Assembly: GCF_039555755.1 (NCBI RefSeq)
Contig: NZ_CP154631.1
Location: forward strand, 2,666,001 to 2,730,000
Origin: Pseudomonas sediminis
GTDB taxonomy: Bacteria > Pseudomonadota > Gammaproteobacteria > Pseudomonadales > Pseudomonadaceae
Reading direction: 5' to 3'
DNA: 64,000 bases
Shown: positions 598-18,079 of the stretch, piece after piece
Layout: the number at the start of each line of letters is the position of its first letter
Position numbering within the stretch: the stretch's first letter is position 1
Translations under genes and position numbers: made by a program
Notes under the pieces: generated by a model
What the model was told of the DNA's origin: nothing
The model's database searches: none
Seen by the model: only the letters and a program-made list of their open reading frames with translations

Positions 598-929
598 GCG
601 TTTTTGGCCGGCCATTTACCTGGCTGGGCCTGTCGTTGCGCGGGGCGTGTGAAACGTTGAGGTCTTTGTCGTGCGCTGGGTGGCATGCCTGCTGTCTTTA
701 CGGCAGCCCGCGTCGGCCTGTGGCACAAGAGGCTGTCTCCGTTTAGTTCGTGCCTGTGTAGCGGGGGGGGGGGGATGAGCGTCAAGGAAATGTAAAAATC
801 TAAATCTAGTTGTATTGCTATTGTATATAAGAGTTATTAGCATTCGCGCACTTTGTTAAGTATTTGTTACTTCCTGTTGCACTGCCGCTTGCAAGGCCAG
901 GACGTAGCCTTTCCAACCTGGGGACAACA
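598..929. other. Intergenic region with G12 tract and AT-rich promoter
   Basis: This is the only gene-free stretch above 300 bases. The first half carries no recognisable gene. A run of 12 G lies at 763-774. From about 785 to 865 the sequence becomes AT-rich and probably holds the promoter and Fur site of the downstream TonB receptor. Short reading frames here show no family features. Confidence 0.7.
826..844 (+). promoter_or_regulatory. Fur-box-like site upstream of the siderophore receptor
   Basis: TATAAGAGTTATTAGCATT resembles pseudomonad Fur boxes of the AATGAGAATTATTxGCATT type. It lies about 85 bases before the receptor start in an AT-rich promoter. The match is by eye; iron repression is inferred from it and from the gene's function. 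Confidence 0.5.
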
Positions 930-3200
930 ATGACAATCCGTAGTCGTAAGCATCATCACGTCAATCATCTTGCCGCACTTGTCGCGGCAACCCTGCCAGC
1001 CCTGGCAGTTGCACAGACCGCTGACAGCGAAAAGGGCGTGGACCTGCCCGAGATGGTGGTGACGTCCAAGGCCGAAATCCCCTACAAGGCCGACAAGAGC
1101 GCCAATACCAAGCTGACCCAGCCGCTGCTGGATACACCCAAGACCGTGCAGGTGATCAAGAAGGAGATGCTCCGCGAACAAGGCGCAGGCAGCCTGATGG
1201 AGGCGCTGCGCAATACCCCCGGCATCACCCTGCAGCTCGGCGAAAACGGCAATACCTCTGCGGGCGACACCTTCATGATGCGCGGCTTCTCCACCCAGCA
1301 ATCGACCTTCGTCGACGGTGTGCGTGACCTCGGCGCGGTCAGCCGCGATGTGTTCAACCTGGATCAGGTTGAGGTGGTCAAGGGGGCAGCCGGCTCCGAT
1401 ATTGGTCGTGGTGCATCCTCGGGTTACATCAATCTGATCTCCAAGCTGCCGACCCTGACTGACGAGACCTTCGCCACCCTCGGCTACGGCACCGCCGACA
1501 AGAGCAACCTCACCGCCGACATCAATCGTCAGTTGGGTGACAACTCGGCGCTGCGCCTGAACCTGATGCGTCGCGCTGGCGACGTCGATGGCCGCGACTA
1601 TGTGGACAACAGCAGCTATGGCGTTGCCCCGGCGATCGCATTCGGCCTGGATACGGCGACCCGCGTCTACCTCTACTCGCAGCATGTGCGCCAGGACAAC
1701 ACGCCAGACGGCGGCATCCCGACCATCGGCATGAGCGGCTTCTACAACGCCAATGCGGCGCTTAACGCTGCTGGCAAGGTCGACACGGAAAACTACTACG
1801 GGGCCAAGGGTGACTATGAGCGCATCGACGGCGACATGTTCACCCTCAAGGTCGAACACGACGTCAATGACGCCCTGACCCTACGCAACCTGTCGCGTTG
1901 GGGACGCAGCAATAACGACCGCATCCTCACCGGCATCAACGCGCTCAATGCCAATGGTTCGACCAATCCGGCAAACTGGACCGTTTCCCGCAGTCGTCAG
2001 GTGGTCGACCAGGAAAACCAGATCCTCGCCAACCAGAGCAGCCTGAACGCTCAGTTCGATACCTTCGGCCTGCGCAACGAGTTAGCGGCTGGCCTTGAGC
2101 TGATGAGCGAGAAGCAGCTCAACCGCAGCTATGCCACTGCCGCCCAGACCATCGATGGCGTGGCCTACCCGGCAGTGCCGCTGCCGCCAGCCAACCTGTA
2201 TGACCCGAACGCGCACGATGCTCTGGGTGACCCCTACAAGACCGGCGCCTATACCGATGGTGAAACCAAGACCGCCGCGCTTTACGTTTTCGATACCCTG
2301 CACCTGAACGAGCAGTGGGCGCTCAATGGCGGTGTGCGTTTCGAGCACTTCCGCACCGAGACCGACAGCGTCGCCATCACCTCCGGCGCACGTGTGCCGG
2401 GCAGTGGCTACGAGTCGGGCGACCTGACCAGTTGGAACACCGGCGTGGTATTCAAGCCCTTGCCCAACGGCAGCATTTACCTGTCCTACGCCAACTCGAT
2501 GACTCCGCCGGGGAGCAACAACTTCGCTCTGGTGGCGGACTCCGCGACTTCTTCGTCCAACGAACAGGTTGGTCTGGACCCGCAGGAAACCCGACACATC
2601 GAGCTCGGCACCAAATGGGATCTGCTGGATGAGCGCCTGGCGCTGACCCTGGCGGCCTACCGCACGGAGAACGAGAACCAGGTCAGCTACGACTCCTTCG
2701 CTGCCCGCTACTTCCAGGAAGGCAAGACCCGCGTCGACGGCGTCGAGCTTGGCGTGGTCGGCCAGCTGACCAACTTCTGGCAGGTTTCCGCCGGCGTGGC
2801 TCACATGAACACCAAGCAGCTCAATCAGGCCAGCTTCAGTGCCACCAACGGCGTCAGCAATAACACTGGCGTGCGCTGGTCACCGGATCTGACTGCGACA
2901 CTGTGGACTTCCTACACCCTGGGCGATCTGACCCTGGGCGGTGGCGCGCGCTACGTGTCCGAGCAGGACCGGGTGATCGTTTCCGGTGTCGACATGAGCA
3001 CGCAGAACATGCCGGTCATCCCGTCGTACTGGGTGGCCGATGCCATGGCAGCCTACCGTCTGAACAAGAACGTCAACCTGCGTCTGAACCTGTATAACCT
3101 GTTCGACAAGGAGTACATCGAGTCGCTGAACAACAGTGGTGCCCGTGCTCGTCTCGGCACGCCGCGTTCGGCGATGTTCACCACCGAACTGTCCTTCTGA
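930..3200 (+). CDS. piuA: TonB-dependent siderophore receptor (PiuA/Fiu-like)
   Basis: A 756-residue outer-membrane ferric-siderophore receptor. The start at 930 is preferred over the longer frame from 864 because it gives a clean signal peptide (basic n-region, hydrophobic LAALVAATLPALAVA, cleavage near AVAQ). A TonB-box-like EMVVTS follows, then the plug domain with MRGFSTQQSTFVDGVRD and VEVVKGAAGSDIGRG, and a 22-strand barrel ending in the typical C-terminal aromatic (ELSF). It is followed by a terminator hairpin and piuC. The order speC-piuA-piuC matches P. aeruginosa PA4519-PA4515-PA4514 from memory, where PiuA takes up catecholate-type siderophores and conjugates. The ligand here is not proven. 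Confidence 0.85.
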   Translation: MTIRSRKHHHVNHLAALVAATLPALAVAQTADSEKGVDLPEMVVTSKAEIPYKADKSANTKLTQPLLDTPKTVQVIKKEMLREQGAGSLMEALRNTPGITLQLGENGNTSAGDTFMMRGFSTQQSTFVDGVRDLGAVSRDVFNLDQVEVVKGAAGSDIGRGASSGYINLISKLPTLTDETFATLGYGTADKSNLTADINRQLGDNSALRLNLMRRAGDVDGRDYVDNSSYGVAPAIAFGLDTATRVYLYSQHVRQDNTPDGGIPTIGMSGFYNANAALNAAGKVDTENYYGAKGDYERIDGDMFTLKVEHDVNDALTLRNLSRWGRSNNDRILTGINALNANGSTNPANWTVSRSRQVVDQENQILANQSSLNAQFDTFGLRNELAAGLELMSEKQLNRSYATAAQTIDGVAYPAVPLPPANLYDPNAHDALGDPYKTGAYTDGETKTAALYVFDTLHLNEQWALNGGVRFEHFRTETDSVAITSGARVPGSGYESGDLTSWNTGVVFKPLPNGSIYLSYANSMTPPGSNNFALVADSATSSSNEQVGLDPQETRHIELGTKWDLLDERLALTLAAYRTENENQVSYDSFAARYFQEGKTRVDGVELGVVGQLTNFWQVSAGVAHMNTKQLNQASFSATNGVSNNTGVRWSPDLTATLWTSYTLGDLTLGGGARYVSEQDRVIVSGVDMSTQNMPVIPSYWVADAMAAYRLNKNVNLRLNLYNLFDKEYIESLNNSGARARLGTPRSAMFTTELSF

Positions 3201-3270: not shown

Positions 3271-3948
3271 ATGTTGCTGCATATCCCGCAGGTTCTGAGC
3301 AAGCAGGAGGTCGCCGCCCTGCGCGCCGAGCTGGCGGCCCATGATTGGGTCGACGGCGCGCGTTCGTCCGGCGCCCAGGCTGCGGCGCTCAAGAGCAACC
3401 TGCAGTTCCCGGCAGAGTCACCAGCTTTCGCCGCGCTCTCGCAAAGCATCGCTGGCGCCTTGCAGCGTCACCCGCTGTTCGTCTCGGCGGTGTTGCCACG
3501 GCACATGCTGCCGCCGATGTTCAACCGTTACAGCGGTGGCGGGCGCTACGGCAACCATGTCGACAACGCCCTGCAGCGTGACCGTTTCAGTGGTTTGCAG
3601 GTGCGCACCGACGTTTCCACCACGGTGTTTCTCAGCGAGCCGGATGAGTACGAAGGCGGCGAGCTGATCATCGAGGACACCTACGGCGAGCATGAGGTGA
3701 AGCTGGCGGCTGGCGATGCCATCCTCTACCCGGCCACCAGCCTGCACCGCGTCGAGCCTGTGACCAGCGGCACACGTATCGCCTCGTTCCTGTGGACGCA
3801 GAGCTGGGTACGCGATGCCTGGCAGCGCAAGCTGCTGTTCGAGCTGGACATGAACATCCTCAAGCTGCGCGCGCAACTGGGTGACAGCCAGGAGGTGCTT
3901 GGCCTGACCAGCACCTACCACAACTTGCTGCGTCAATGGAGCGAGTGA
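3271..3948 (+). CDS. piuC: PKHD-type Fe(II)/2-oxoglutarate dioxygenase PiuC
   Basis: A 225-residue member of the YbiX/PiuC family of Fe(II)- and 2-oxoglutarate-dependent dioxygenases. The iron ligands are visible as the HxD motif in GNHVDNAL and the distal His in SLHRVEPV; the 2-oxoglutarate-binding Arg is in SGTRIASF. The ATG at 3271 gives the normal family length, while the frame upstream is a translated part of the hairpin. The gene usually sits next to TonB siderophore receptors, as here. Its substrate is unknown; a role in siderophore handling is inferred from context. Confidence 0.88.
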   Translation: MLLHIPQVLSKQEVAALRAELAAHDWVDGARSSGAQAAALKSNLQFPAESPAFAALSQSIAGALQRHPLFVSAVLPRHMLPPMFNRYSGGGRYGNHVDNALQRDRFSGLQVRTDVSTTVFLSEPDEYEGGELIIEDTYGEHEVKLAAGDAILYPATSLHRVEPVTSGTRIASFLWTQSWVRDAWQRKLLFELDMNILKLRAQLGDSQEVLGLTSTYHNLLRQWSE

Positions 3949-3950
3949 GC

Positions 3951-5048
3951 ATGAGCCTTCCGGCGCCGCTGAGTGAAATTCCTGCTGACCTCGTTTCTGC
4001 CCGCGACTATGAGCGCTATGCCCTCGAGCGGCTCGATGGCAATGCCCTGGCCTATCTGCAGGGCGGCGCTGGCGACGAGCTGACCTGCCAGGCCAATCTG
4101 CAGGCATGGCAGGAGTGGGCCTTGCTGCCGCGCATGTTGCGTGATCTGCGTGGTGGCCACACCCGTTGCCAGTTGCTTGGCGATGCACTGCAGCATCCCA
4201 TCGTGCTGGCGCCGATTGCTTATCAGCATCTGTTTCACGCCGAGGGTGAACGCGCCAGCGCGCTGGCTGCTGGTGTCATGGGCGGCGCGGCGGTGCTCAG
4301 CTCCTTCGCCTCCACGCGATTGGAGGAGGTGGCCGAGGTGGCGCAGGGGCCGCTGTGGTTTCAGCTCTACTGGCAGGGCAGCGGCCCGGCGACCTTGGCC
4401 CTGGCGCAGCGCGCCGAAGCGGCCGGCTATCGCGCCTTGGTGCTGACGGTGGATGCGCCGGTGTCCGGCGTACGCAACCGCGAACAGCGTGCGGGCTTTC
4501 GCTTGCCGCCGGATATCTCTGCGGTGAATCTCGAACAGGCGGTGCAGCTGCCGGCGTTGCCCGAGGGCGGCAGCGCGGTGTTCGATGGGCTGATGGCGGT
4601 GGCGCCGGGTTGGCAGGATGTCGCCTGGCTGTGTCAACGCAGCTGCCTGCCGGTGCTGCTCAAGGGCATCCTGCACGCTGACGATGCGCGTTTGGCCGTG
4701 GAGGCAGGGGCTGCCGGGGTGATCGTCTCCAACCATGGTGGCCGGGTGCTGGATTCGCAGTGGCCGGCGATTCGCTCGCTGGCGTCGATTCGCGCCGAGC
4801 TAGGCGCAGATGTGCCGGTCTTGGTCGATGGCGGCATACGTCGTGGCAGTGATGTGTTCAAGGCTCTGGCGCTGGGCGCCGACGCGGTGCTGATCGGCCG
4901 GCCTTACATCCATGCCTTGGCTACCGCCGGAGCGCTGGGTGTGGCGCACCTGCTCAGGCTGTTGCGTGAAGAACTGGAGGTGACCATGGCGCTATGCGGT
5001 TGCCGTGATCTTGCCAGCATCGCCCCCGAGATGCTGCAGCGTGCCTGA
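3951..5048 (+). CDS. FMN-dependent alpha-hydroxy-acid dehydrogenase
   Basis: A 365-residue FMN-dependent alpha-hydroxy-acid oxidase/dehydrogenase (lactate dehydrogenase LldD/glycolate oxidase family, TIM barrel). Visible motifs are LAPIAYQHLFH near the FMN, LTVDAPVSGVRNRE, the catalytic SNHGGR, and the phosphate-binding DGGIRRGSDVFKALALGA with IGRPY. ATG 3951 is spaced about 10 bases from GGAG inside the piuC 3' end and follows the piuC stop by 2 bases, so the two are translationally linked. An in-frame ATG at 3936 overlaps piuC. The substrate is unknown. Its place behind piuA-piuC suggests it serves iron-limited metabolism or processing of a hydroxy acid. Confidence 0.85.
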   Translation: MSLPAPLSEIPADLVSARDYERYALERLDGNALAYLQGGAGDELTCQANLQAWQEWALLPRMLRDLRGGHTRCQLLGDALQHPIVLAPIAYQHLFHAEGERASALAAGVMGGAAVLSSFASTRLEEVAEVAQGPLWFQLYWQGSGPATLALAQRAEAAGYRALVLTVDAPVSGVRNREQRAGFRLPPDISAVNLEQAVQLPALPEGGSAVFDGLMAVAPGWQDVAWLCQRSCLPVLLKGILHADDARLAVEAGAAGVIVSNHGGRVLDSQWPAIRSLASIRAELGADVPVLVDGGIRRGSDVFKALALGADAVLIGRPYIHALATAGALGVAHLLRLLREELEVTMALCGCRDLASIAPEMLQRA

Positions 5049-5157: not shown

Positions 5158-6729
5158 TTAGTAAAGGTCGCGCCGGTAACGTCCGGCTTCGCGCAATGCC
5201 GTCACCTGCTGCTGGCCGAGCAAGCCGCGCAGCAGCGCGTCGACTTCCTCACCCATACCCTTGAGGCTGCCGCACAGCAACAGGCTGGCGCCACGCTCGA
5301 TCCAGGTGCGCAGCTCATCAGCAGCGTCGCGCAGCAGGTGTTGTACGTAGACCGGTTGCGCCTGATCGCGGGAGAACGCCAGGTCGAGGCGGCTAATGTG
5401 GCCGCTGCGCTGCCAGGTGCGTAGCTCGTCGGTGAAGAACAGATCGCAGGCGGCGTTGCGTTCGCCGAACAGCAACCAGTGGCCATGCTGGCCCAGCCGC
5501 TCACGCTCACGCAGGTGGGCGCGCAGGCCGGCCAGGCCGGTGCCGTTGCCTATCAGGATCAGCGGGCCGCTGGTTGCCGGCAGGTGAAAGCTCGGGTTGC
5601 TGCGAATACGCAGTTCGACAGCCCCGCCGATGGGGGCGTATCGGCACAGCCAGCCGGAACCCAGGCCGGGCTGACCTTTGGCGTCCTGCTGCAGGCGGAC
5701 CAACAGTTCCAGCGCGCCGTCGTCAGGCAGCGAGGCGATGGAGTAGTCGCGATGCGTCAGCAGGGGCAGCGCCTGCAGCACGGTCTCGGCATCCAGGCCG
5801 TGCAGGCTTTGCAGGTCATCCGGCCATTGCCGACGGGCCAGTTGTGAGCTCAGGGATTGGCCGTCGCCAAGGCGTAGCTGGCCATCGAGCTGGAGCGCGC
5901 GCAGCAACGCTTCGACTCGCTCGGGCGGCTGGCAGGGGGCGACTTCGGCGATATCACCGGCTTGCCAGGCCGGCATGTCGTCTGTTGGCTGCAAGCGCAG
6001 GTGGAACGCGGGGCGCCCCTGGCTGGCGGGGTTCAGACATTGACGTGCGAGCAGTTGCCAGGGCTGGTAATCGGCTGCCTGCCAATCGGCGAAGTACTGC
6101 CCGCCAGCCAGCAGGCCGAGTTGCTGCTGCCATTGGCGCAGCACGGCCGGGTCGCCACGGTCGGCTTCCAGGCGGTCGAACAGGGGATTCGCGCCGAGGC
6201 GTTGCAGGCGCTGATCCAGTTGCCTGGCAAAACCACAGAAATGCTGATATTGGCGATCCCCCAGGCCGAGCAGGGCGAAGTTGAGCCTGCTCAGGTCTGG
6301 CTGGGCCTGGTCGAGCTCACGCAGCCAGCGAGCCGCGTGGTCCGGCGCTTCGCCTTCGCCGTAGGTGCTGGCTATCAGTAGCAGGCGGCTGCTGGAGGTC
6401 AGGCGTTCTGCGCGCAGGGTATCGCATGGCAGTGCCTGTGCATTGATGCCGCTGCTGCGCAGCTGTTCGGCACTCATTTCGGCCAGTGCCTGCGCCTGGC
6501 CGCTCTGGCTGGCGTAGGCAACGAATAAGGGCTCGCCTGTCTCGCTGGTGGTCGCGGCGCAGGCAGAGCGGGGACGCCAGCTTCGCACGCAGATCCCCAG
6601 CCAGGCGAGCACGGCTAGCGCGGCGCTGATGTGCCGTGGCGGCTGCAGCCAGAGCAGCAGGATGGCCAGGCTCAGGCAGGTAAGGGCGGGCCAGTAGCGC
6701 TGTAAGAAGGGGGCGAGTGGAGATGTCAT
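5158..6729 (-). CDS. Membrane-anchored NADPH flavoprotein reductase (flavodoxin + FAD/NAD domains)
   Basis: About 523 residues. Two hydrophobic N-terminal segments (roughly residues 7-25 and 30-50) anchor it in the inner membrane. A flavodoxin domain follows (FVAYASQSGQAQ, then ASTYGEGEAPDHA), then a sulfite-reductase/P450-reductase-like FAD domain (RDYSIAS) and an NAD(P) domain (LIGNGTGLAGLRAHL, LFGERN, LLCGS). ATG 6729 is chosen over the ATG eight codons upstream because it starts just before the membrane segments. It is the last gene of the TonB receptor-PepSY-DUF2271-DUF4198 group. It probably passes NADPH electrons through FAD and FMN to the PepSY partner. From memory, P. aeruginosa PiuB joins PepSY and flavoprotein parts in one chain. 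Confidence 0.85.
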   Translation of the reverse strand: MTSPLAPFLQRYWPALTCLSLAILLLWLQPPRHISAALAVLAWLGICVRSWRPRSACAATTSETGEPLFVAYASQSGQAQALAEMSAEQLRSSGINAQALPCDTLRAERLTSSSRLLLIASTYGEGEAPDHAARWLRELDQAQPDLSRLNFALLGLGDRQYQHFCGFARQLDQRLQRLGANPLFDRLEADRGDPAVLRQWQQQLGLLAGGQYFADWQAADYQPWQLLARQCLNPASQGRPAFHLRLQPTDDMPAWQAGDIAEVAPCQPPERVEALLRALQLDGQLRLGDGQSLSSQLARRQWPDDLQSLHGLDAETVLQALPLLTHRDYSIASLPDDGALELLVRLQQDAKGQPGLGSGWLCRYAPIGGAVELRIRSNPSFHLPATSGPLILIGNGTGLAGLRAHLRERERLGQHGHWLLFGERNAACDLFFTDELRTWQRSGHISRLDLAFSRDQAQPVYVQHLLRDAADELRTWIERGASLLLCGSLKGMGEEVDALLRGLLGQQQVTALREAGRYRRDLY

Positions 6730-6832
6730 GCAGATCCATAGCCTGGATGTCATCCAGGATGGTCGTGGTGCACATTCTCTGCGGCAGCTGCCTGATCGCA
6801 GTGGCTGCCGCAGGTGCAGCGTGCTGATCGAC

Positions 6833-7705
6833 TCAGGGCGCGAGCACTTCCAGGGTTGCGCTGTAGCTGGCGCGGCGGCGGGTGGCTGGCGCCTGTGCCT
6901 GATCGCTTTCCAGCTCGGCTTCCAGCCAGTACATGCCGGCCTCGGGCCAGGTGATGCTGATACGGCCCTGGGCGTCGCTCTTCAACTCGATCTCGCCGAG
7001 CTGGTCGCGGTAGCGGTTGCCGCCGGGGATCACGCTCACTGCCACATCAGCGGCAGGCTTGCCGTCGAGCAGCAGGATGAACTCGGCCGCTTCACCCGCG
7101 AACAGGTCATTGGGGTGGGTCACCGGCTGCAGCTCCAGACCCTTGCCGGTGGTGGCCAGCACGGTGTCGGTGGTTTTGCCGGAGGTGACGAAGACTTCCA
7201 TGCGGCTGGAGGTCTGGCTGACCTGCAAATCTTCGGCGGCCGCCGGGATTTCCTTGGCCAGGGCATCAGCGCTGCCCATCCAGCGCCGCTGCTGGCCGTT
7301 CTCCTTGTAGGAGGCGAACAGGCCGTGGTTGGCGATGCTCAGCTTGTAGGTGCCCTTCTGCGAGAGGGGCAGATCGAAGCTGCTGCGATAGCGACCGATA
7401 TGGCCATTTTTCGGTTGCAGCAGGCTGCCGTCCGGTGCCTGGATCTGCAATTGCGCGGCCGGGCGCGGACGCATGCCAGGCGGCCCACCGGCAGGCGTCT
7501 GGTCCACTGCGCCGACACCGGCGATACGCATCGGAAAGTGCTCGAAGTAGAACAGATCATTGGAGACAGCGGCGTCGACGGTGATCCACGGTGCTTCACC
7601 GGACAGTACGGTGGCCGAGGGCAGCATCCAGGCGCGGTGAGCCTGAGCGGAGAAAGGCAGGCACAGGGCCAGGGTCAGTGCGGCCCATTTGCAGGTCGTG
7701 TTCAT
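6833..7705 (-). CDS. Periplasmic DUF4198 protein
   Basis: A 290-residue protein with a clear signal peptide (WAALTLALCLPFSAQAHRAW). The mature protein begins with the HRAWMLPS segment typical of DUF4198, a family related to the periplasmic component of cobalt/nickel transport systems. The C-terminal part (AAEFILLLDGKPAADVAVSV...GMYWLEAEL) looks like an Ig-like beta domain. It lies 11 bases downstream of the DUF2271 gene, in one operon with the PepSY and flavoprotein genes. A metal-binding or adaptor role in the periplasm is inferred; the exact function is unknown. Confidence 0.8.
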   Translation of the reverse strand: MNTTCKWAALTLALCLPFSAQAHRAWMLPSATVLSGEAPWITVDAAVSNDLFYFEHFPMRIAGVGAVDQTPAGGPPGMRPRPAAQLQIQAPDGSLLQPKNGHIGRYRSSFDLPLSQKGTYKLSIANHGLFASYKENGQQRRWMGSADALAKEIPAAAEDLQVSQTSSRMEVFVTSGKTTDTVLATTGKGLELQPVTHPNDLFAGEAAEFILLLDGKPAADVAVSVIPGGNRYRDQLGEIELKSDAQGRISITWPEAGMYWLEAELESDQAQAPATRRRASYSATLEVLAP

Positions 7706-7716
7706 GATGATTTCCT

Positions 7717-8229
7717 TTATGGGGTGAGTTCGAGGGTAATGGCGCCCAGCTCGTGCTGGCCCTGGACGCTGGCCTGGCTGCGCTGCTGTGGCGGCCAGGT
7801 GAACGGCACACGTAGCAGTTCGCGGCCACCGACTTCGCGTGCAGCCTCTACGACCAGTTGGTATTTACCCGCCGCCAGGTTCTGCAACTGCGGGCTGTCG
7901 CTGGCGAAGCTCAGGCTGTGCTTGCCCACGGCGTGGGTGGCGCCGCTGATGCCATCGACCGGCATGTCCAGGTTGCGCCCGCTACGGCGCCACCACTGGC
8001 GCAGGTCCTTGAGCCATTTCTCGCCCTCGGCATCCTTCATCTTCATGTCGTACCACACCGCCAGATCGGCGGCATGACGGTTGCCCGCATCCTCCAGCCA
8101 GACGGCCACATAGGGGCGGTGATATTCGGCGACCTGCAGGCGCGGGATCTCGACCTCGACGGTCATCTGCGCCGCCAGCAGTGGGGCGCTGAGCAGGCTG
8201 GTAAAGGCGAACAACAAGGGTCTGGACAT
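7717..8229 (-). CDS. Periplasmic DUF2271 protein
   Basis: About 170 residues. Start 8229 gives a normal signal peptide (MSRPLLFAFTSLLSAPLLAAQ); the longer frame upstream overlaps the PepSY gene and is not protein-like. The body shows the DUF2271 pattern: VEIPRLQVAEYHRPYVAVWLED near the N-terminus, then RQWWRRSGRNLDMPVDGISGATH and KYQLVVEAAREVGGRE. DUF2271 is repeatedly found beside PepSY membrane proteins and flavoprotein reductases. The GATH segment recalls the flavin-attachment region of FMN-binding periplasmic proteins, but no flavinylation site can be asserted. Its biochemical role is unknown. Confidence 0.8.
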   Translation of the reverse strand: MSRPLLFAFTSLLSAPLLAAQMTVEVEIPRLQVAEYHRPYVAVWLEDAGNRHAADLAVWYDMKMKDAEGEKWLKDLRQWWRRSGRNLDMPVDGISGATHAVGKHSLSFASDSPQLQNLAAGKYQLVVEAAREVGGRELLRVPFTWPPQQRSQASVQGQHELGAITLELTP

Positions 8230-8239
8230 GGCCACCTCG

Positions 8240-8839
8240 TCAATGGATGAAAACAAGCGCCAGCAGCAGCGGCAGCAACAGGCCCAGACCAGTGAGTGGC
8301 CAGGTCGAGGGGCGGCTACCGGCATGGCGGTGCAGGAGCAACAGGCCGGTGAGGCTGAACATCACGCAGACTGCGGCGAAGATATCGATGAACCAGCTCC
8401 AGGCCGTGCCGGTATGGCGGCCCTTGTGCAGGTCGTTGAAGTAGGCGATCCAGCCTCGGTCGGTGGCTTCGTATTCCAGTGCGCCGGAACTCAGATCGAG
8501 GCTTAGCCAGGCGTCGCCGCCCGGGCGCGGCAGGGCGATATACAGCTCGCCATCCGACCATTCGGCGCTGCGTCCGTCGAGGCGCACATCCAGGCTCTGC
8601 TCCAGCCATTGACGCAAGGCCAGCGGCAAACCCTGATTGGGCGTTTGCTGCAGCAACTGCGCCTGCAATTCGGCGGGCAGTTGCGCCTGCTTCTGTTGTA
8701 CCTGCGGGCGTGCTTCGATCTGCCCGGCGTGGTTGAGGGTGATGCCGGTGATAGCGAACAGCAGCATGCCAGCCAGGCATAGCGCGGAACTGATCCAGTG
8801 CCATTGGCGCAGGGTGCCGAGCCAGGGGAGTCGGGGCAT
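8240..8839 (-). CDS. PepSY-associated transmembrane protein
   Basis: A 199-residue inner-membrane protein with an N-terminal helix (HWISSALCLAGMLLFAITGITLNH), a periplasmic PepSY-like domain of about 100 residues, and two C-terminal helices (AWSWFIDIFAAVCVMFSLTGLLLL and a final leucine-rich segment). Histidines sit at membrane edges: H14, H36, the LHKGRH pair, and LLHRHAG. Such pairs suggest heme-type electron transfer across the membrane, as in FoxB/FpvG-like ferric-siderophore reductases. It is the first gene after the receptor terminator and starts the reductase operon. Confidence 0.82.
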   Translation of the reverse strand: MPRLPWLGTLRQWHWISSALCLAGMLLFAITGITLNHAGQIEARPQVQQKQAQLPAELQAQLLQQTPNQGLPLALRQWLEQSLDVRLDGRSAEWSDGELYIALPRPGGDAWLSLDLSSGALEYEATDRGWIAYFNDLHKGRHTGTAWSWFIDIFAAVCVMFSLTGLLLLHRHAGSRPSTWPLTGLGLLLPLLLALVFIH

Positions 8840-8888
8840 GTGCAGCGTGCTCGAAGGAGGGAGGCGGCGGATTCTAGAGGGGAAATTC

Positions 8889-8908
8889 TTGCGGGTGGTT
8901 CTTATTTA
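8889..8908 (-). promoter_or_regulatory. Fur-box-like site before the PepSY reductase operon
   Basis: On the minus strand, TAAATAAGAACCACCCGCAA agrees at about 15 of 20 positions with pseudomonad Fur boxes of the TAAATGAGAATGATTCGCAA type. It lies about 50 bases upstream of the PepSY start, suggesting an internal iron-controlled promoter. Confidence 0.4.
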
Positions 8909-8950
8909 CACAGTCTATACGTTCGTTTGCCGATGCCGTTCACCAGAGAA

Positions 8951-8976
8951 GCCGCCGCTCCGGATGGAGCGGCGGC
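8951..8976 (-). terminator. Hairpin after the second TonB receptor
   Basis: A perfect 11-bp stem (GCCGCCGCTCC / GGAGCGGCGGC) around a 4-base loop lies just past the receptor stop. The following minus-strand sequence is only moderately T-rich, so some read-through into the PepSY operon is possible. Confidence 0.6.
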
Positions 8977-8983
8977 ATTGTGA

Positions 8984-11209
8984 TCAGAAGTCGATCACGG
9001 CAGACAGCCAGAGACGGCGGCCTTCTTCCACAGTGCCCGTGGTGGACTGGCCGGTTTGCATGTAGTCGGTGCCGTAGGCCGTGCTATCGACCGCTCCGCT
9101 GTTTGCATAGGTGGTATATGCCTTGCCTTTGACGAAGTCCTTGTCCAGCAGGTTGTAGATCGCTGCATTGAGCGTGACGTTTTCCGAGGCTTTGTACGAG
9201 CCACCCAGATGGAACAGGGTATAGGCCTTGGTGTTCTTGCCTAGGGTGTCGTAGATCGACTGATTGGTGGAGTAGCTGCCGTTGGCATTGGCCAGGTTTT
9301 CGTACTTCGAGGTAAAGCGAGCGCGTTCGCCCCGGTACTCGCTCTTCAGCCAAAGGTTGAGGCGGTCAGTGGTCTGCCAGGCGAGCTTGGCATTGGCCAG
9401 ATGTTCGGGAGTATTGGTCAGCGGTTGGCCCTTGTTGTCGCCGCTTTTCTGTTCGCTATCGGTATAGGTGTAGTTAGCCGACAGCGTCCAGGCCGGCGCG
9501 AAGTTCCAGCTGGCAGCAAGTTCCAGACCCTGGGTTACGGCTTCGTCGATATTGATCTGCTGCGAGCAGGTGCCAGCCGGGAGTCCGCCACTTGCTATGT
9601 TGCCGCTGCACAGCGGATCTGCAACCGGATCACCGCTGGCGATCTTGTCCTTGAACTTGTTGTGGAACAGTGTGGCGTTGGCATTGAAGCCGGACAGACT
9701 GTCGAAGTAGACGCCAAACTCGCTGCTGGTGGTTGTCTCAGGCTTCAGGTCTGGGTTGCCGATGGTCACGACCCGTCCCTGGCTGGTGACACCGTTTATG
9801 CCGCCATGCAGGTCGTTCAGATCCGGAGTCTTGTAGCCACGGCTGATACCACCTTTGAGTGTCCAGCTGTCCGTGGTATTCCATACCAGATAGGCACGCG
9901 GGCTGACATGGCCGCCGAAGGCTTCATGGTCGTCATAGCGCGCGCCCAACGTCAGGGCCAGATCATCACGCAAGCGCCATTCATCTTCGGCGAAGACTGC
10001 CCAGGTTTTCTGTTCGAAATCATCTAGGGCGATGCCGTCGGTCATTTCGGCTTTCCACCACTGACCGCCGAGGGTGGCAATGTGCGACTCACCTATTGGG
10101 GCTACGAGTTTGCTGTCGAAAACCAGGTTGGTTGTCTCCAGATCACGATCATCACCAATTAGCGTGCCTGGGATGCCGGAGCTATTGCCGATAATGTCAC
10201 CTGGAATGGTACGACCGATGGTTTCGGTGCGATTGTGCATCAGGCTGGAGTCCAGGGTCCCGAAGCCCAGGCGCGCGGTGTGGGTCAGGGCGATCTGCTC
10301 GCGTTCGAATCGTAGCTCGTCGGCATAGCCATTGGCGGAGGTAGCGCTGGCAGTACAGTCGCGGTTCTGGCCGTCGAGGCTGCCGAGCTGGCATTCGTCG
10401 TTGTTGTACTTCTGGCGGCCGCGTTCAATATCCAGGCCGAAATCGTGATTCTCATGAGGAGTTAGAGTCAGGCGTGCTCCCAGATTGTTGGTACGGCCAT
10501 CGACTGGAGAGGGGCCACGCTTGCTGACATCTACGCCGTTACCGTAGCTCAGGTCGGACTCCTCACGATTGAACAGGCTGCCCCGTACCTGCAGGCCGAG
10601 CAGGTCGTCGATCAGCGGGCCGCTCGCGTAGATGCTGGTGTTACGGGTATCACCGAAGTCGCGATTTTCCTGGTAGGTGTAATCCTGGGTCAAAGAGCCG
10701 GACCATTCCTTGCCGACTTTGCGGGTGATGATGTTGATCACCCCGCCCATGGCGTCGGAACCATACAGAGTCGACATCGGCCCGCGAATCACTTCGATAC
10801 GCTCGATGGCGGACATCGGTGGCATGAAGCTGGTGGACGTCTCACCGAAGCCATTGGGCGTGACGTTACCGGCAGCGTTCTGACGGCGGCCGTCGATCAG
10901 GATCAGGGTGTACTGGCTGGGCATGCCGCGGATGCTGATATTCAGGCCGCCGGTCTTACCGGTGCCCTGGCCAATGTCGATACCTTCCACATCGCCTAGT
11001 GCCTGGGCCAGGTTGTTGTAGCGCTTCTGCTGCAACTCCTCGCGGCTGATCACGCTGATGCTGGCGGGGGCTTCGGTGATCTTCTGCTCGAAGCCGGAGG
11101 CGCTGACGACCACGTCGCCTAGGGCGATGGGCTCGTTGGCCTGGGCGCCGAAGCTGGCGGCCAAGGCAATGGCGCTGGCTAAGGCGGTACGGGAATTAAG
11201 GGCGGACAT
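8984..11209 (-). CDS. TonB-dependent receptor (CirA/FepA-like)
   Basis: A 741-residue outer-membrane receptor. Start 11209 has an AGGAG site and gives a signal peptide ending AQA before the mature NEPIALG. The TonB box is around LGDVVVSASG. The plug domain contains ISVISREELQ, NISIRGMPSQYTLILIDGRRQ and IERIEVIRGPMSTLYGSDAMGGVINIIT, the usual CirA/FepA/catecholate-receptor signature. The last residue is Phe, as in barrel proteins. A Fur-like site lies upstream. Together with the downstream PepSY/flavoprotein genes it suggests uptake and then reduction of a ferric siderophore. The ligand is unknown. Confidence 0.87.
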   Translation of the reverse strand: MSALNSRTALASAIALAASFGAQANEPIALGDVVVSASGFEQKITEAPASISVISREELQQKRYNNLAQALGDVEGIDIGQGTGKTGGLNISIRGMPSQYTLILIDGRRQNAAGNVTPNGFGETSTSFMPPMSAIERIEVIRGPMSTLYGSDAMGGVINIITRKVGKEWSGSLTQDYTYQENRDFGDTRNTSIYASGPLIDDLLGLQVRGSLFNREESDLSYGNGVDVSKRGPSPVDGRTNNLGARLTLTPHENHDFGLDIERGRQKYNNDECQLGSLDGQNRDCTASATSANGYADELRFEREQIALTHTARLGFGTLDSSLMHNRTETIGRTIPGDIIGNSSGIPGTLIGDDRDLETTNLVFDSKLVAPIGESHIATLGGQWWKAEMTDGIALDDFEQKTWAVFAEDEWRLRDDLALTLGARYDDHEAFGGHVSPRAYLVWNTTDSWTLKGGISRGYKTPDLNDLHGGINGVTSQGRVVTIGNPDLKPETTTSSEFGVYFDSLSGFNANATLFHNKFKDKIASGDPVADPLCSGNIASGGLPAGTCSQQINIDEAVTQGLELAASWNFAPAWTLSANYTYTDSEQKSGDNKGQPLTNTPEHLANAKLAWQTTDRLNLWLKSEYRGERARFTSKYENLANANGSYSTNQSIYDTLGKNTKAYTLFHLGGSYKASENVTLNAAIYNLLDKDFVKGKAYTTYANSGAVDSTAYGTDYMQTGQSTTGTVEEGRRLWLSAVIDF

Positions 11210-11263: not shown

Positions 11264-11282
11264 ATGATAGTGATTTGCATAT
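11264..11282 (-). promoter_or_regulatory. Fur-box-like site of the CirA-like receptor
   Basis: On the minus strand ATATGCAAATCACTATCAT matches the classical Fur pattern ATGCAAATGATTATCAT with few changes. It lies about 55 bases upstream of the receptor start. Confidence 0.58.
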
Positions 11283-11437
11283 AAGGTTCAATTGCGGATG
11301 ATATCGATGGGCATGGCATCCGGCTGGAGAGGCCGTGGCGATTGGCCTGCAGGCAGATGTAAATTTTGTAAATACGATTAATTCTCGAGTTTTGAGTGCG
11401 CTTTGCGCTGGCTTTCCTGGCGTTCTAAGCTGCCGGC

Positions 11438-12177: not shown

Positions 12178-12468
12178 TCAGATGGGCTGCCAGTCCAGGG
12201 TCAATTCTTCCTGCCAGGCAAAACGTTCGAAGTGACTGCCGACGACGCCTTCCAGGCGTTGCAGGTCTTCGCTGCTGGCGCTTTCCACCTGTAGGCGCAG
12301 GCCCTGGTTTTCCGCTTTCAGGGTCGCCAGGCCAGCGCCGAACTCGATGCGCCCCTGTTGTTCATCGAAGCTGACCGGGATCTTGTGTGCGAAGTGCTTG
12401 CACAGCCGGCTGATATAGCGTGCCGGGGTGTCGGTTGCGACGAAGGCACTGCTGCTGAATGGAGTCAT
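12178..12468 (-). CDS. DUF2218 domain protein
   Basis: A 96-residue cytoplasmic protein of the DUF2218 family, recognised by the N-terminal TPARYISRLCKHFAHKIPV and the segment GRIEFGAGLATLKAENQGLRLQVE. Members are small alpha/beta proteins often found near siderophore or iron genes; their function is not established. ATG 12468 is preferred because AGAGGA lies six bases upstream, while the ATG at 12474 abuts it. The gene is convergent with the decayed pxpA, with only a few bases between them. Confidence 0.8.
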   Translation of the reverse strand: MTPFSSSAFVATDTPARYISRLCKHFAHKIPVSFDEQQGRIEFGAGLATLKAENQGLRLQVESASSEDLQRLEGVVGSHFERFAWQEELTLDWQPI

Positions 12469-12523
12469 GGACATTCCTCTGGGTTATTGGCGTTCGGAGC
12501 GGCCGCCCGCGTGAGCGCTCGGT

Positions 12524-15709: not shown

Positions 15710-15713
<4 letters not shown>
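15282..15713 (-). CDS. cueR: Copper-responsive MerR-family regulator CueR
   Basis: A 143-residue MerR-family activator of copper efflux genes. The helix-turn-helix ([49 protein letters not shown]) is followed by a dimerisation helix and the metal loop with Cys112 and Cys120 ([13 protein letters not shown]), the same numbering as E. coli CueR. The C-terminal tail carries two further cysteines (SCGAAGC). Its start overlaps the copA stop by 4 bases, so copA and cueR form an operon. The TAG stop falls inside a REP element, so the last residues may have been altered by repeat insertion. Two CueR boxes are visible nearby. Confidence 0.92.

Positions 15714-18079
<2,366 letters not shown>

What the first reader, a model, noticed from the sequence alone, without database searches (positions are those of the whole stretch)
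5158..11209. Split PiuB-like trans-membrane reductase module: TonB receptor, PepSY, DUF2271, DUF4198 and flavoprotein
Five minus-strand genes appear to form a path from outer membrane to cytosol. A receptor imports the ferric complex. A His-rich PepSY membrane protein could carry heme across the inner membrane. DUF2271 and DUF4198 are exported. A membrane-anchored flavodoxin/FAD/NAD(P) protein supplies electrons from NADPH. FoxB/PiuB-like proteins reduce ferric siderophores with parts of this set, but the roles of DUF2271 and DUF4198 are not described to my knowledge. Fur-like sites precede the receptor and the PepSY operon.
Basis: partly seen in the sequence, partly recalled or inferred. Interest (0 to 1): 0.75.

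Follow-up and report, generated by a model that had tools for sequence, protein, structure and literature searches.

The report
Flavin-relay ferric reductase gene cluster
A Pseudomonas gene cluster encodes a receptor and a four-protein electron path that probably frees iron from imported carriers; the kind is already described, but this version lacks its own flavin-attaching enzyme and probably borrows the one that serves a respiratory sodium pump.

Summary
The five minus-strand genes are real: TonB receptor, PF16357 PepSY membrane protein, DUF2271, DUF4198, flavodoxin/FAD/NAD protein. A DUF4198 was shown to bind nickel through an N-terminal histidine (PMC12537917); this one has that histidine and fold. 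'Split PiuB' needs correcting: a fused PiuB lies 1 kb upstream of the window. The Fur sites do not beat shuffles here. What my searches did not find in print: the cluster lacks apbE, and clusters with PepSY, DUF2271 and DUF4198 but no apbE sit in genomes with the sodium pump NQR (17 of 17 in a phylum draw), those with apbE do not (0 of 32), over at least 4 changes on a tree. One of three blind predictions failed (G842), and L118 is a further exception. The only ApbE found in this genome is in its nqr operon. Most likely: ferric-chelate reduction through a flavinylated relay matured by NQR's ApbE.

The parts
8984..11209 (-). TonB-dependent receptor; nearest solved structure by sequence the colicin I receptor Cir (2hdf, 340 bits); all NCBIfam models listed are below their cut-offs
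11266..11284 (-). weak Fur-like match (12/19) overlapping a promoter-like pair TTGAAC-16-TATCAT; the same 19 bases lie before the receptors of G064 and G012; not above shuffles
8951..8976 (-). terminator-like hairpin after the receptor (11-bp stem, loop ATCC, tail TTCTCT)
   Evidence: read; not listed by the scan
8240..8839 (-). PepSY_TM_like_2 (PF16357) three-helix membrane protein, predicted haem conduit (H14, H37, H138; H199 in 70 of 98)
7717..8229 (-). DUF2271 exported protein, predicted covalent FMN carrier
7936..7956 (-). ApbE flavinylation motif DGISGAT (residues 92-98; acceptor Thr98)
6833..7705 (-). DUF4198 exported protein, predicted metal binder
7637..7639 (-). codon of His23, the predicted first residue of mature DUF4198 (AQA|HRAW)
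6754..6832 (.). 79-base gap at the place where apbE stands in most apbE-bearing relatives; no apbE here
5158..6753 (-). flavodoxin / FAD / NAD(P) protein with two N-terminal hydrophobic segments (about residues 22-36 and 42-56)
864..3200 (+). second TonB receptor, PiuA-like by place and similarity
3271..3948 (+). PiuC-like PKHD-type dioxygenase
3936..5048 (+). FMN-dependent dehydrogenase family protein

Best explanation
A ferric-siderophore (or other ferric chelate) reduction module. The receptor brings the ferric complex into the periplasm. In the cytosol the membrane-anchored flavoprotein takes electrons from NAD(P)H through FAD and FMN and passes them to haem in the three-helix PepSY protein, which carries them across the inner membrane to the covalent FMN on DUF2271, which reduces Fe(III). 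DUF4198 binds metal through its N-terminal histidine, perhaps holding the freed iron for a ferrous importer. The FMN on DUF2271 is attached by the ApbE of the nqr operon, because the cluster has none of its own. Shown here: the genes, the motif, the conserved histidines, the DUF4198 fold, the single ApbE match of the genome beside nqr genes, and the apbE/NQR pattern. Shown by others in relatives: flavinylation of a DUF2271, nickel binding by a DUF4198, Fur control and lower fitness under EDTA in Caulobacter. Inferred: haem, order of electron steps, substrate, and the use of NQR's ApbE.
For: Domains. Exact Dxx[ST]GA[ST] motif (motif as given in PMC12052999, passages). The same cluster with ApbE in Caulobacter is iron-responsive and Fur-controlled (PMC3751524), and insertions in it lower fitness under EDTA (PMC12004947); DUF2271 and DUF4198 genes are iron-responsive in Alteromonas (PMC7190382). 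G000 has one ApbE match, beside nqr genes. No ApbE within 8 kb in 17 of 49 loci with PF16357, DUF2271 and DUF4198; NqrC over cut-off in 17 of 17 of those genomes and 0 of the 32 with local ApbE; in 15 of 17 a distant ApbE lies with nqr genes. Named genomes: 24 of 24 against 0 of 4. On a PepSY tree the label changes at least 4 times.
Against: No biochemical test. The blind prediction failed for G842 (no local ApbE, no NqrC). L118 also breaks the rule (no NqrC), though its genome has another DUF2271-DUF4198-ApbE run. The other kind of Pseudomonas DUF2271 locus keeps local ApbE in 11 of 11 genomes tested, 3 of them with NqrC (G014, G069, G075). No family holds both states in the phylum draw, so the pattern rests on few independent changes. 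ApbE is common anyway: in 65 of 65 DUF2271 genomes but also in 14 of the 18 Pseudomonas genomes without any DUF2271 match put; the NQR rate of genomes without the cluster was not measured. FoxB is not among the listed fold matches of the PepSY model. Fur sites unconvincing in the window. 17 of 49 loci have no such flavoprotein on the same strand within 6 kb, so another donor can serve.
Confidence: 0.65

Rival explanations
1. The same electron path, but for copper, nickel or another metal chelate rather than iron.
For: The studied DUF4198 binds Ni with Kd 18 nM (PMC12537917); the nearest fold is Zcp, solved with zinc, copper and cobalt; a PepSY_TM protein, CrpH, is induced by copper starvation and supports haem-copper oxidases in Bordetella (PMC13038864, passages).
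Against: The same cluster is Fur- and iron-controlled in Caulobacter and its DUF genes are iron-responsive in Alteromonas; the receptor is nearest to Cir and ferric enterobactin receptors; PiuA-, PiuC- and PiuB-like genes are neighbours.
Confidence: 0.15
2. DUF2271 is not flavinylated here; electrons pass directly from PepSY haem to the ferric complex, as is proposed for FoxB, and DUF2271 is a docking or chaperone protein.
For: No apbE in the cluster; many DUF2271 proteins depart from the strict motif (8 of 17 apbE-less and 13 of 32 apbE-bearing loci keep it).
Against: The window's motif is exact; 47 of 49 keep a relaxed motif with the acceptor, and the other two (L174, L178) have TGAT or SGAT without the Asp; a DUF2271 has been shown to take FMN at this motif.
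Confidence: 0.12
3. The receptor is not part of the module; the reductase serves several receptors, PiuA-like ones included.
For: The receptor is 70-71% identical to those of G012 and G064, whose four reductase genes are 92-99% identical to the window's; hairpin after it; a same-strand receptor within 600 bases of PepSY in only 15 of 49 loci.
Against: A receptor lies within 4 kb on either strand in 29 of 49 loci, and a related receptor lies beside the cluster in G064, G012 and G069; in G069 receptor and reductase genes alike are 57-79% identical to the window's.
Confidence: 0.4

Closest known systems
PepSY-like flavinylation systems (Meheust et al. 2021, PMC8238504, passages)
   Same: Three-helix PepSY-like protein, DUF2271 with the flavinylation motif, secreted DUF4198; some clusters with NAD-binding domain or TonB receptor
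   Different: No ApbE in the cluster; the genome's only ApbE match is 2.6 Mb away on the contig, with nqr genes
Caulobacter CC3059-3063 / CCNA_03155-03159 (PMC3751524, PMC12004947, passages)
   Same: PepSY-family membrane protein, DUF2271, DUF4198, flavoprotein; Fur-controlled
   Different: Caulobacter has ApbE between DUF4198 and the flavoprotein
Fused PiuB near piuC in Pseudomonas (12 of 12 loci fetched; own copy)
   Same: PepSY membrane part plus flavodoxin and NAD domains; flavoprotein half about 48% identical (window against G027)
   Different: One chain of about 850 aa, PF03929 type; present in addition to the split module in this genome
FoxB (7ABW; PMC11334425 and PMC13038864, passages)
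   Same: PepSY membrane protein expected to hold haem between conserved histidines
   [quoted passage not shown] its electron donor is unknown
IsDUF4198 (9GCB) and Zcp (9MHI-9MHO)
   Different: 16% identity; metal and further ligands of the window's protein unknown

Membership tests
PepSY-like flavinylation system | PF03929 or PF16357 protein encoded in a flavinylation-associated cluster | tested here: met
   PF16357 285.3 bits, 10 bases before DUF2271
PepSY-like flavinylation system | Flavinylation substrate with [S/T]GA[S/T] | tested here: met
   DGISGAT, residues 92-98
PepSY-like flavinylation system | Three transmembrane helices | tested here: met
   model helices 5-36, 144-173, 179-198 and hydropathy
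PepSY-like flavinylation system | ApbE in the cluster (frequent, not required by the paper's definition) | tested here: not met
   single ApbE match at G000:C1:49671-50513
PepSY-like flavinylation system | Covalent FMN on the substrate | not testable with these tools
   needs protein
PiuB/FoxB PepSY_TM reductase | PF03929 over its cut-off | tested here: met
   37.1 bits against 28.8, covering profile 177-291 only
PiuB/FoxB PepSY_TM reductase | One chain with membrane and flavodoxin/NAD domains (PiuB) | tested here: not met
   separate genes; a fused PiuB is elsewhere
PiuB/FoxB PepSY_TM reductase | FoxB fold | tested here: inconclusive
   no FoxB row among the matches shown
PiuB/FoxB PepSY_TM reductase | Haem between conserved histidines | not testable with these tools
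   H14, H37, H138 conserved; no spectrum
DUF4198 metal-binding proteins | N-terminal His after signal peptide cleavage | tested here: met
   A-H at 22-23 in 84 of 85 rows, the other row a gap; cleavage itself inferred from AxA
DUF4198 metal-binding proteins | Fold of 9GCB | tested here: met
DUF4198 metal-binding proteins | Equivalent of the Ni ligand His18 | tested here: inconclusive
   no residue-level superposition available; H56 (65 of 85) and H197 (81 of 85) are candidates
DUF4198 metal-binding proteins | Metal bound | not testable with these tools
   needs protein
Fur regulon | Fur box at the promoter | tested here: inconclusive
   12/19 and 10/19, not above shuffles; 17/19 in G042 of the same genus

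The most novel reading that the evidence does not exclude
In NQR-bearing gammaproteobacteria the iron-reduction module has lost its own flavin transferase and depends on the one of the sodium-pumping respiratory complex, so that one ApbE matures both NqrB/NqrC and the periplasmic iron-reducing flavoprotein. Iron release from siderophores and NQR assembly would then compete for, and fail together without, the same enzyme and periplasmic FAD.
Probability: 0.6. Interest if true: 0.5.

Novelty: new member of a known kind. Interest (0 to 1): 0.4.

Why it matters
It gives a defined route for electrons from NAD(P)H to iron in the periplasm of pseudomonads, with a covalent flavin as the last carrier. 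The apbE/NQR pattern gives a one-gene test: deleting apbE should hit both the sodium pump and iron use. It also shows that a cluster search that requires a nearby apbE would miss about a third of the loci with these three genes (17 of 49).

Tried and rejected
Split PiuB as a replacement of the fused one: rejected for this genome, which has both; of the 12 genomes with the split cluster searched (two of them, G064 and G862, the same), 7 have a fused PiuB and 5 (G042, G376, G413, G141, G864) gave no full-length match. Folding the natural PepSY-DUF2271 fusion of L118 to see the flavin-haem distance: dropped, because it lacks the third helix and the DUF2271 signal peptide and looks like a deletion. 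FoxB by fold: not among the listed rows, although the model is good (pLDDT 93.9). Solved relatives by sequence: none for the PepSY protein or DUF2271. The class-wide PF16357 draw (369 genomes) added only three full clusters (G772, G842, G847). Flavoprotein loss does not explain the NQR pattern: it is absent from 8 of 17 apbE-less and 9 of 32 apbE-bearing loci. One search labelled four rows 'fused' by frame length alone (L154, L162, L168, L171), so its count of label changes is not used. In one search my two ApbE queries were read from the wrong strand; replace them. A paper on Zcp: none seen in the listing.
Full report
Observation. PepSY and DUF2271 are separated by 10 bases, DUF2271 and DUF4198 by 11, DUF4198 and the flavoprotein by 79, the receptor and PepSY by 144, where an 11-bp perfect hairpin follows the receptor stop.

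Relation to PiuB. A PiuC match was found in 30 of 40 Pseudomonas genomes. I fetched 12 loci from 12 of them; in 12 of 12 a frame of 812-896 aa with a flavoprotein half like the window's (360-427 bits) lies within about 3 kb of piuC, and in 11 of 12 a PiuA-like receptor too. Two of these, and the fused protein beside the split cluster in L094, were scanned in Pfam: PF03929, flavodoxin, NAD domain. The window's own genome has such a protein at G000:C1:2662409-2664958, about 1 kb before the window. The window's split flavoprotein is 48% identical to the C-terminal half of the fused protein of G027. On a tree of 50 flavoproteins the 12 PiuB halves form one clade (100/100) among split ones, unrooted. 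So this genome carries a fused and a split reductase side by side; of 12 genomes with the split cluster, 7 have the fused one and 5 do not by this search (G064 and G862 are the same genome).

The missing apbE. In the genus draw 20 of 119 genomes have DUF2271 over cut-off, at 21 loci. Five are the window's kind without local ApbE; 16 are a different kind with ApbE about 2.3 kb away. The 14 of these 16 that I fetched have a flavoprotein frame of 730-871 aa; the one scanned is a fused PepSY-flavodoxin-NAD protein (L054). In a phylum draw 65 of 398 genomes have DUF2271 over cut-off, at 68 loci; 49 of them have PF16357, DUF2271 and DUF4198 within 8 kb, 32 with and 17 without ApbE within 8 kb, and 19 lack PF16357 or DUF4198 nearby. 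ApbE is somewhere in all 65, but also in 14 of 18 Pseudomonas genomes without a DUF2271 match. A further ApbE exists in 5 of the 32. NqrC is over cut-off in 17 of 17 apbE-less and 0 of 32 apbE-bearing genomes. In 15 of 17 a distant ApbE is beside nqr genes; in G243 and G325 the one fetched is not. In the window's genome it follows the nqr genes directly (NqrC by TIGR01938; NqrF by place and flavin-reductase match only). Named loci: 24 of 24 apbE-less against 0 of 4 apbE-bearing; L116 repeats G483, leaving 23 new to the phylum draw. Three genomes from a class draw were predicted in writing before their ApbE was searched: G772 and G847 came out as predicted, G842 did not. L118 is apbE-less without NqrC, but its genome has another DUF2271-DUF4198-ApbE run. 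Over 79 PepSY rows (L116 left out as a repeat, L118 as a fusion) 41 of 42 apbE-less and 0 of 37 apbE-bearing are in genomes with NqrC over cut-off, and the label changes at least 4 times. Ottowia (L103), the one apbE-less row in a clade of 10, is NqrC-positive, though its ApbE is 235 kb from nqrC. The other kind of Pseudomonas locus keeps local ApbE in 11 of 11 genomes tested for NqrC, 3 with NqrC, so NQR allows but does not force the loss. No family holds both states in the phylum draw.

Iron control. No Fur-like site in the window beats shuffles. Of 95 upstream regions of PepSY genes, close repeats included, 14 reach 15/19 or better, the best 17/19 in G042 of the same genus; these were not shuffled. 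The weak site before the receptor has the same 19 bases in G064 and G012 and overlaps a promoter-like pair.

Literature on the apbE point. Searches: 'PepSY DUF2271 DUF4198', 'ApbE NqrC PepSY', 'VciB, iron reduction, PepSY, ApbE', 'ApbE NQR Pseudomonas flavin transferase'. In the passages read I saw no statement that NQR's ApbE serves the PepSY modules; PMC12052999 does not mention DUF2271 in its main text. Supplements were not read.

Verdict. Real, iron-linked with good probability, a member of a described kind. The apbE-less form tied to NQR is the part worth testing.

Noticed in passing
window 8984-11209 against L045 (G064, same species): The receptor is 71% identical while the flavoprotein, DUF4198, DUF2271 and PepSY genes next to it are 94-99%, as if the receptor had been exchanged.
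   Followed up: partly
G000:C1:926863-927453 (L201): A second, distant DUF4198 gene about 3 kb from a TonB receptor; its sequence matches Zcp and the Ni-binding 9GCB.
   Followed up: partly
L118:8350-9426: Sphingobium in-frame fusion of PepSY and DUF2271 without the third helix and signal peptide, with a changed motif (ISRPT).
   Followed up: partly
L124, L128, L129, L182, L183: Single frames holding both ApbE and DUF2271 matches, in three Planctomycetes and two Pseudomonadota outside the window's class.
   Followed up: no
L204-L207 (G391, G403): DUF2271+DUF4198 at one place and PepSY+flavoprotein at another, the latter about 11 kb from the nqr-linked ApbE.
   Followed up: partly
window 12178-12474: DUF2218 protein (112 bits) just beyond the cluster.
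   Followed up: no
window 15710-18079: Heavy-metal P-type ATPase with HMA domains.
   Followed up: no
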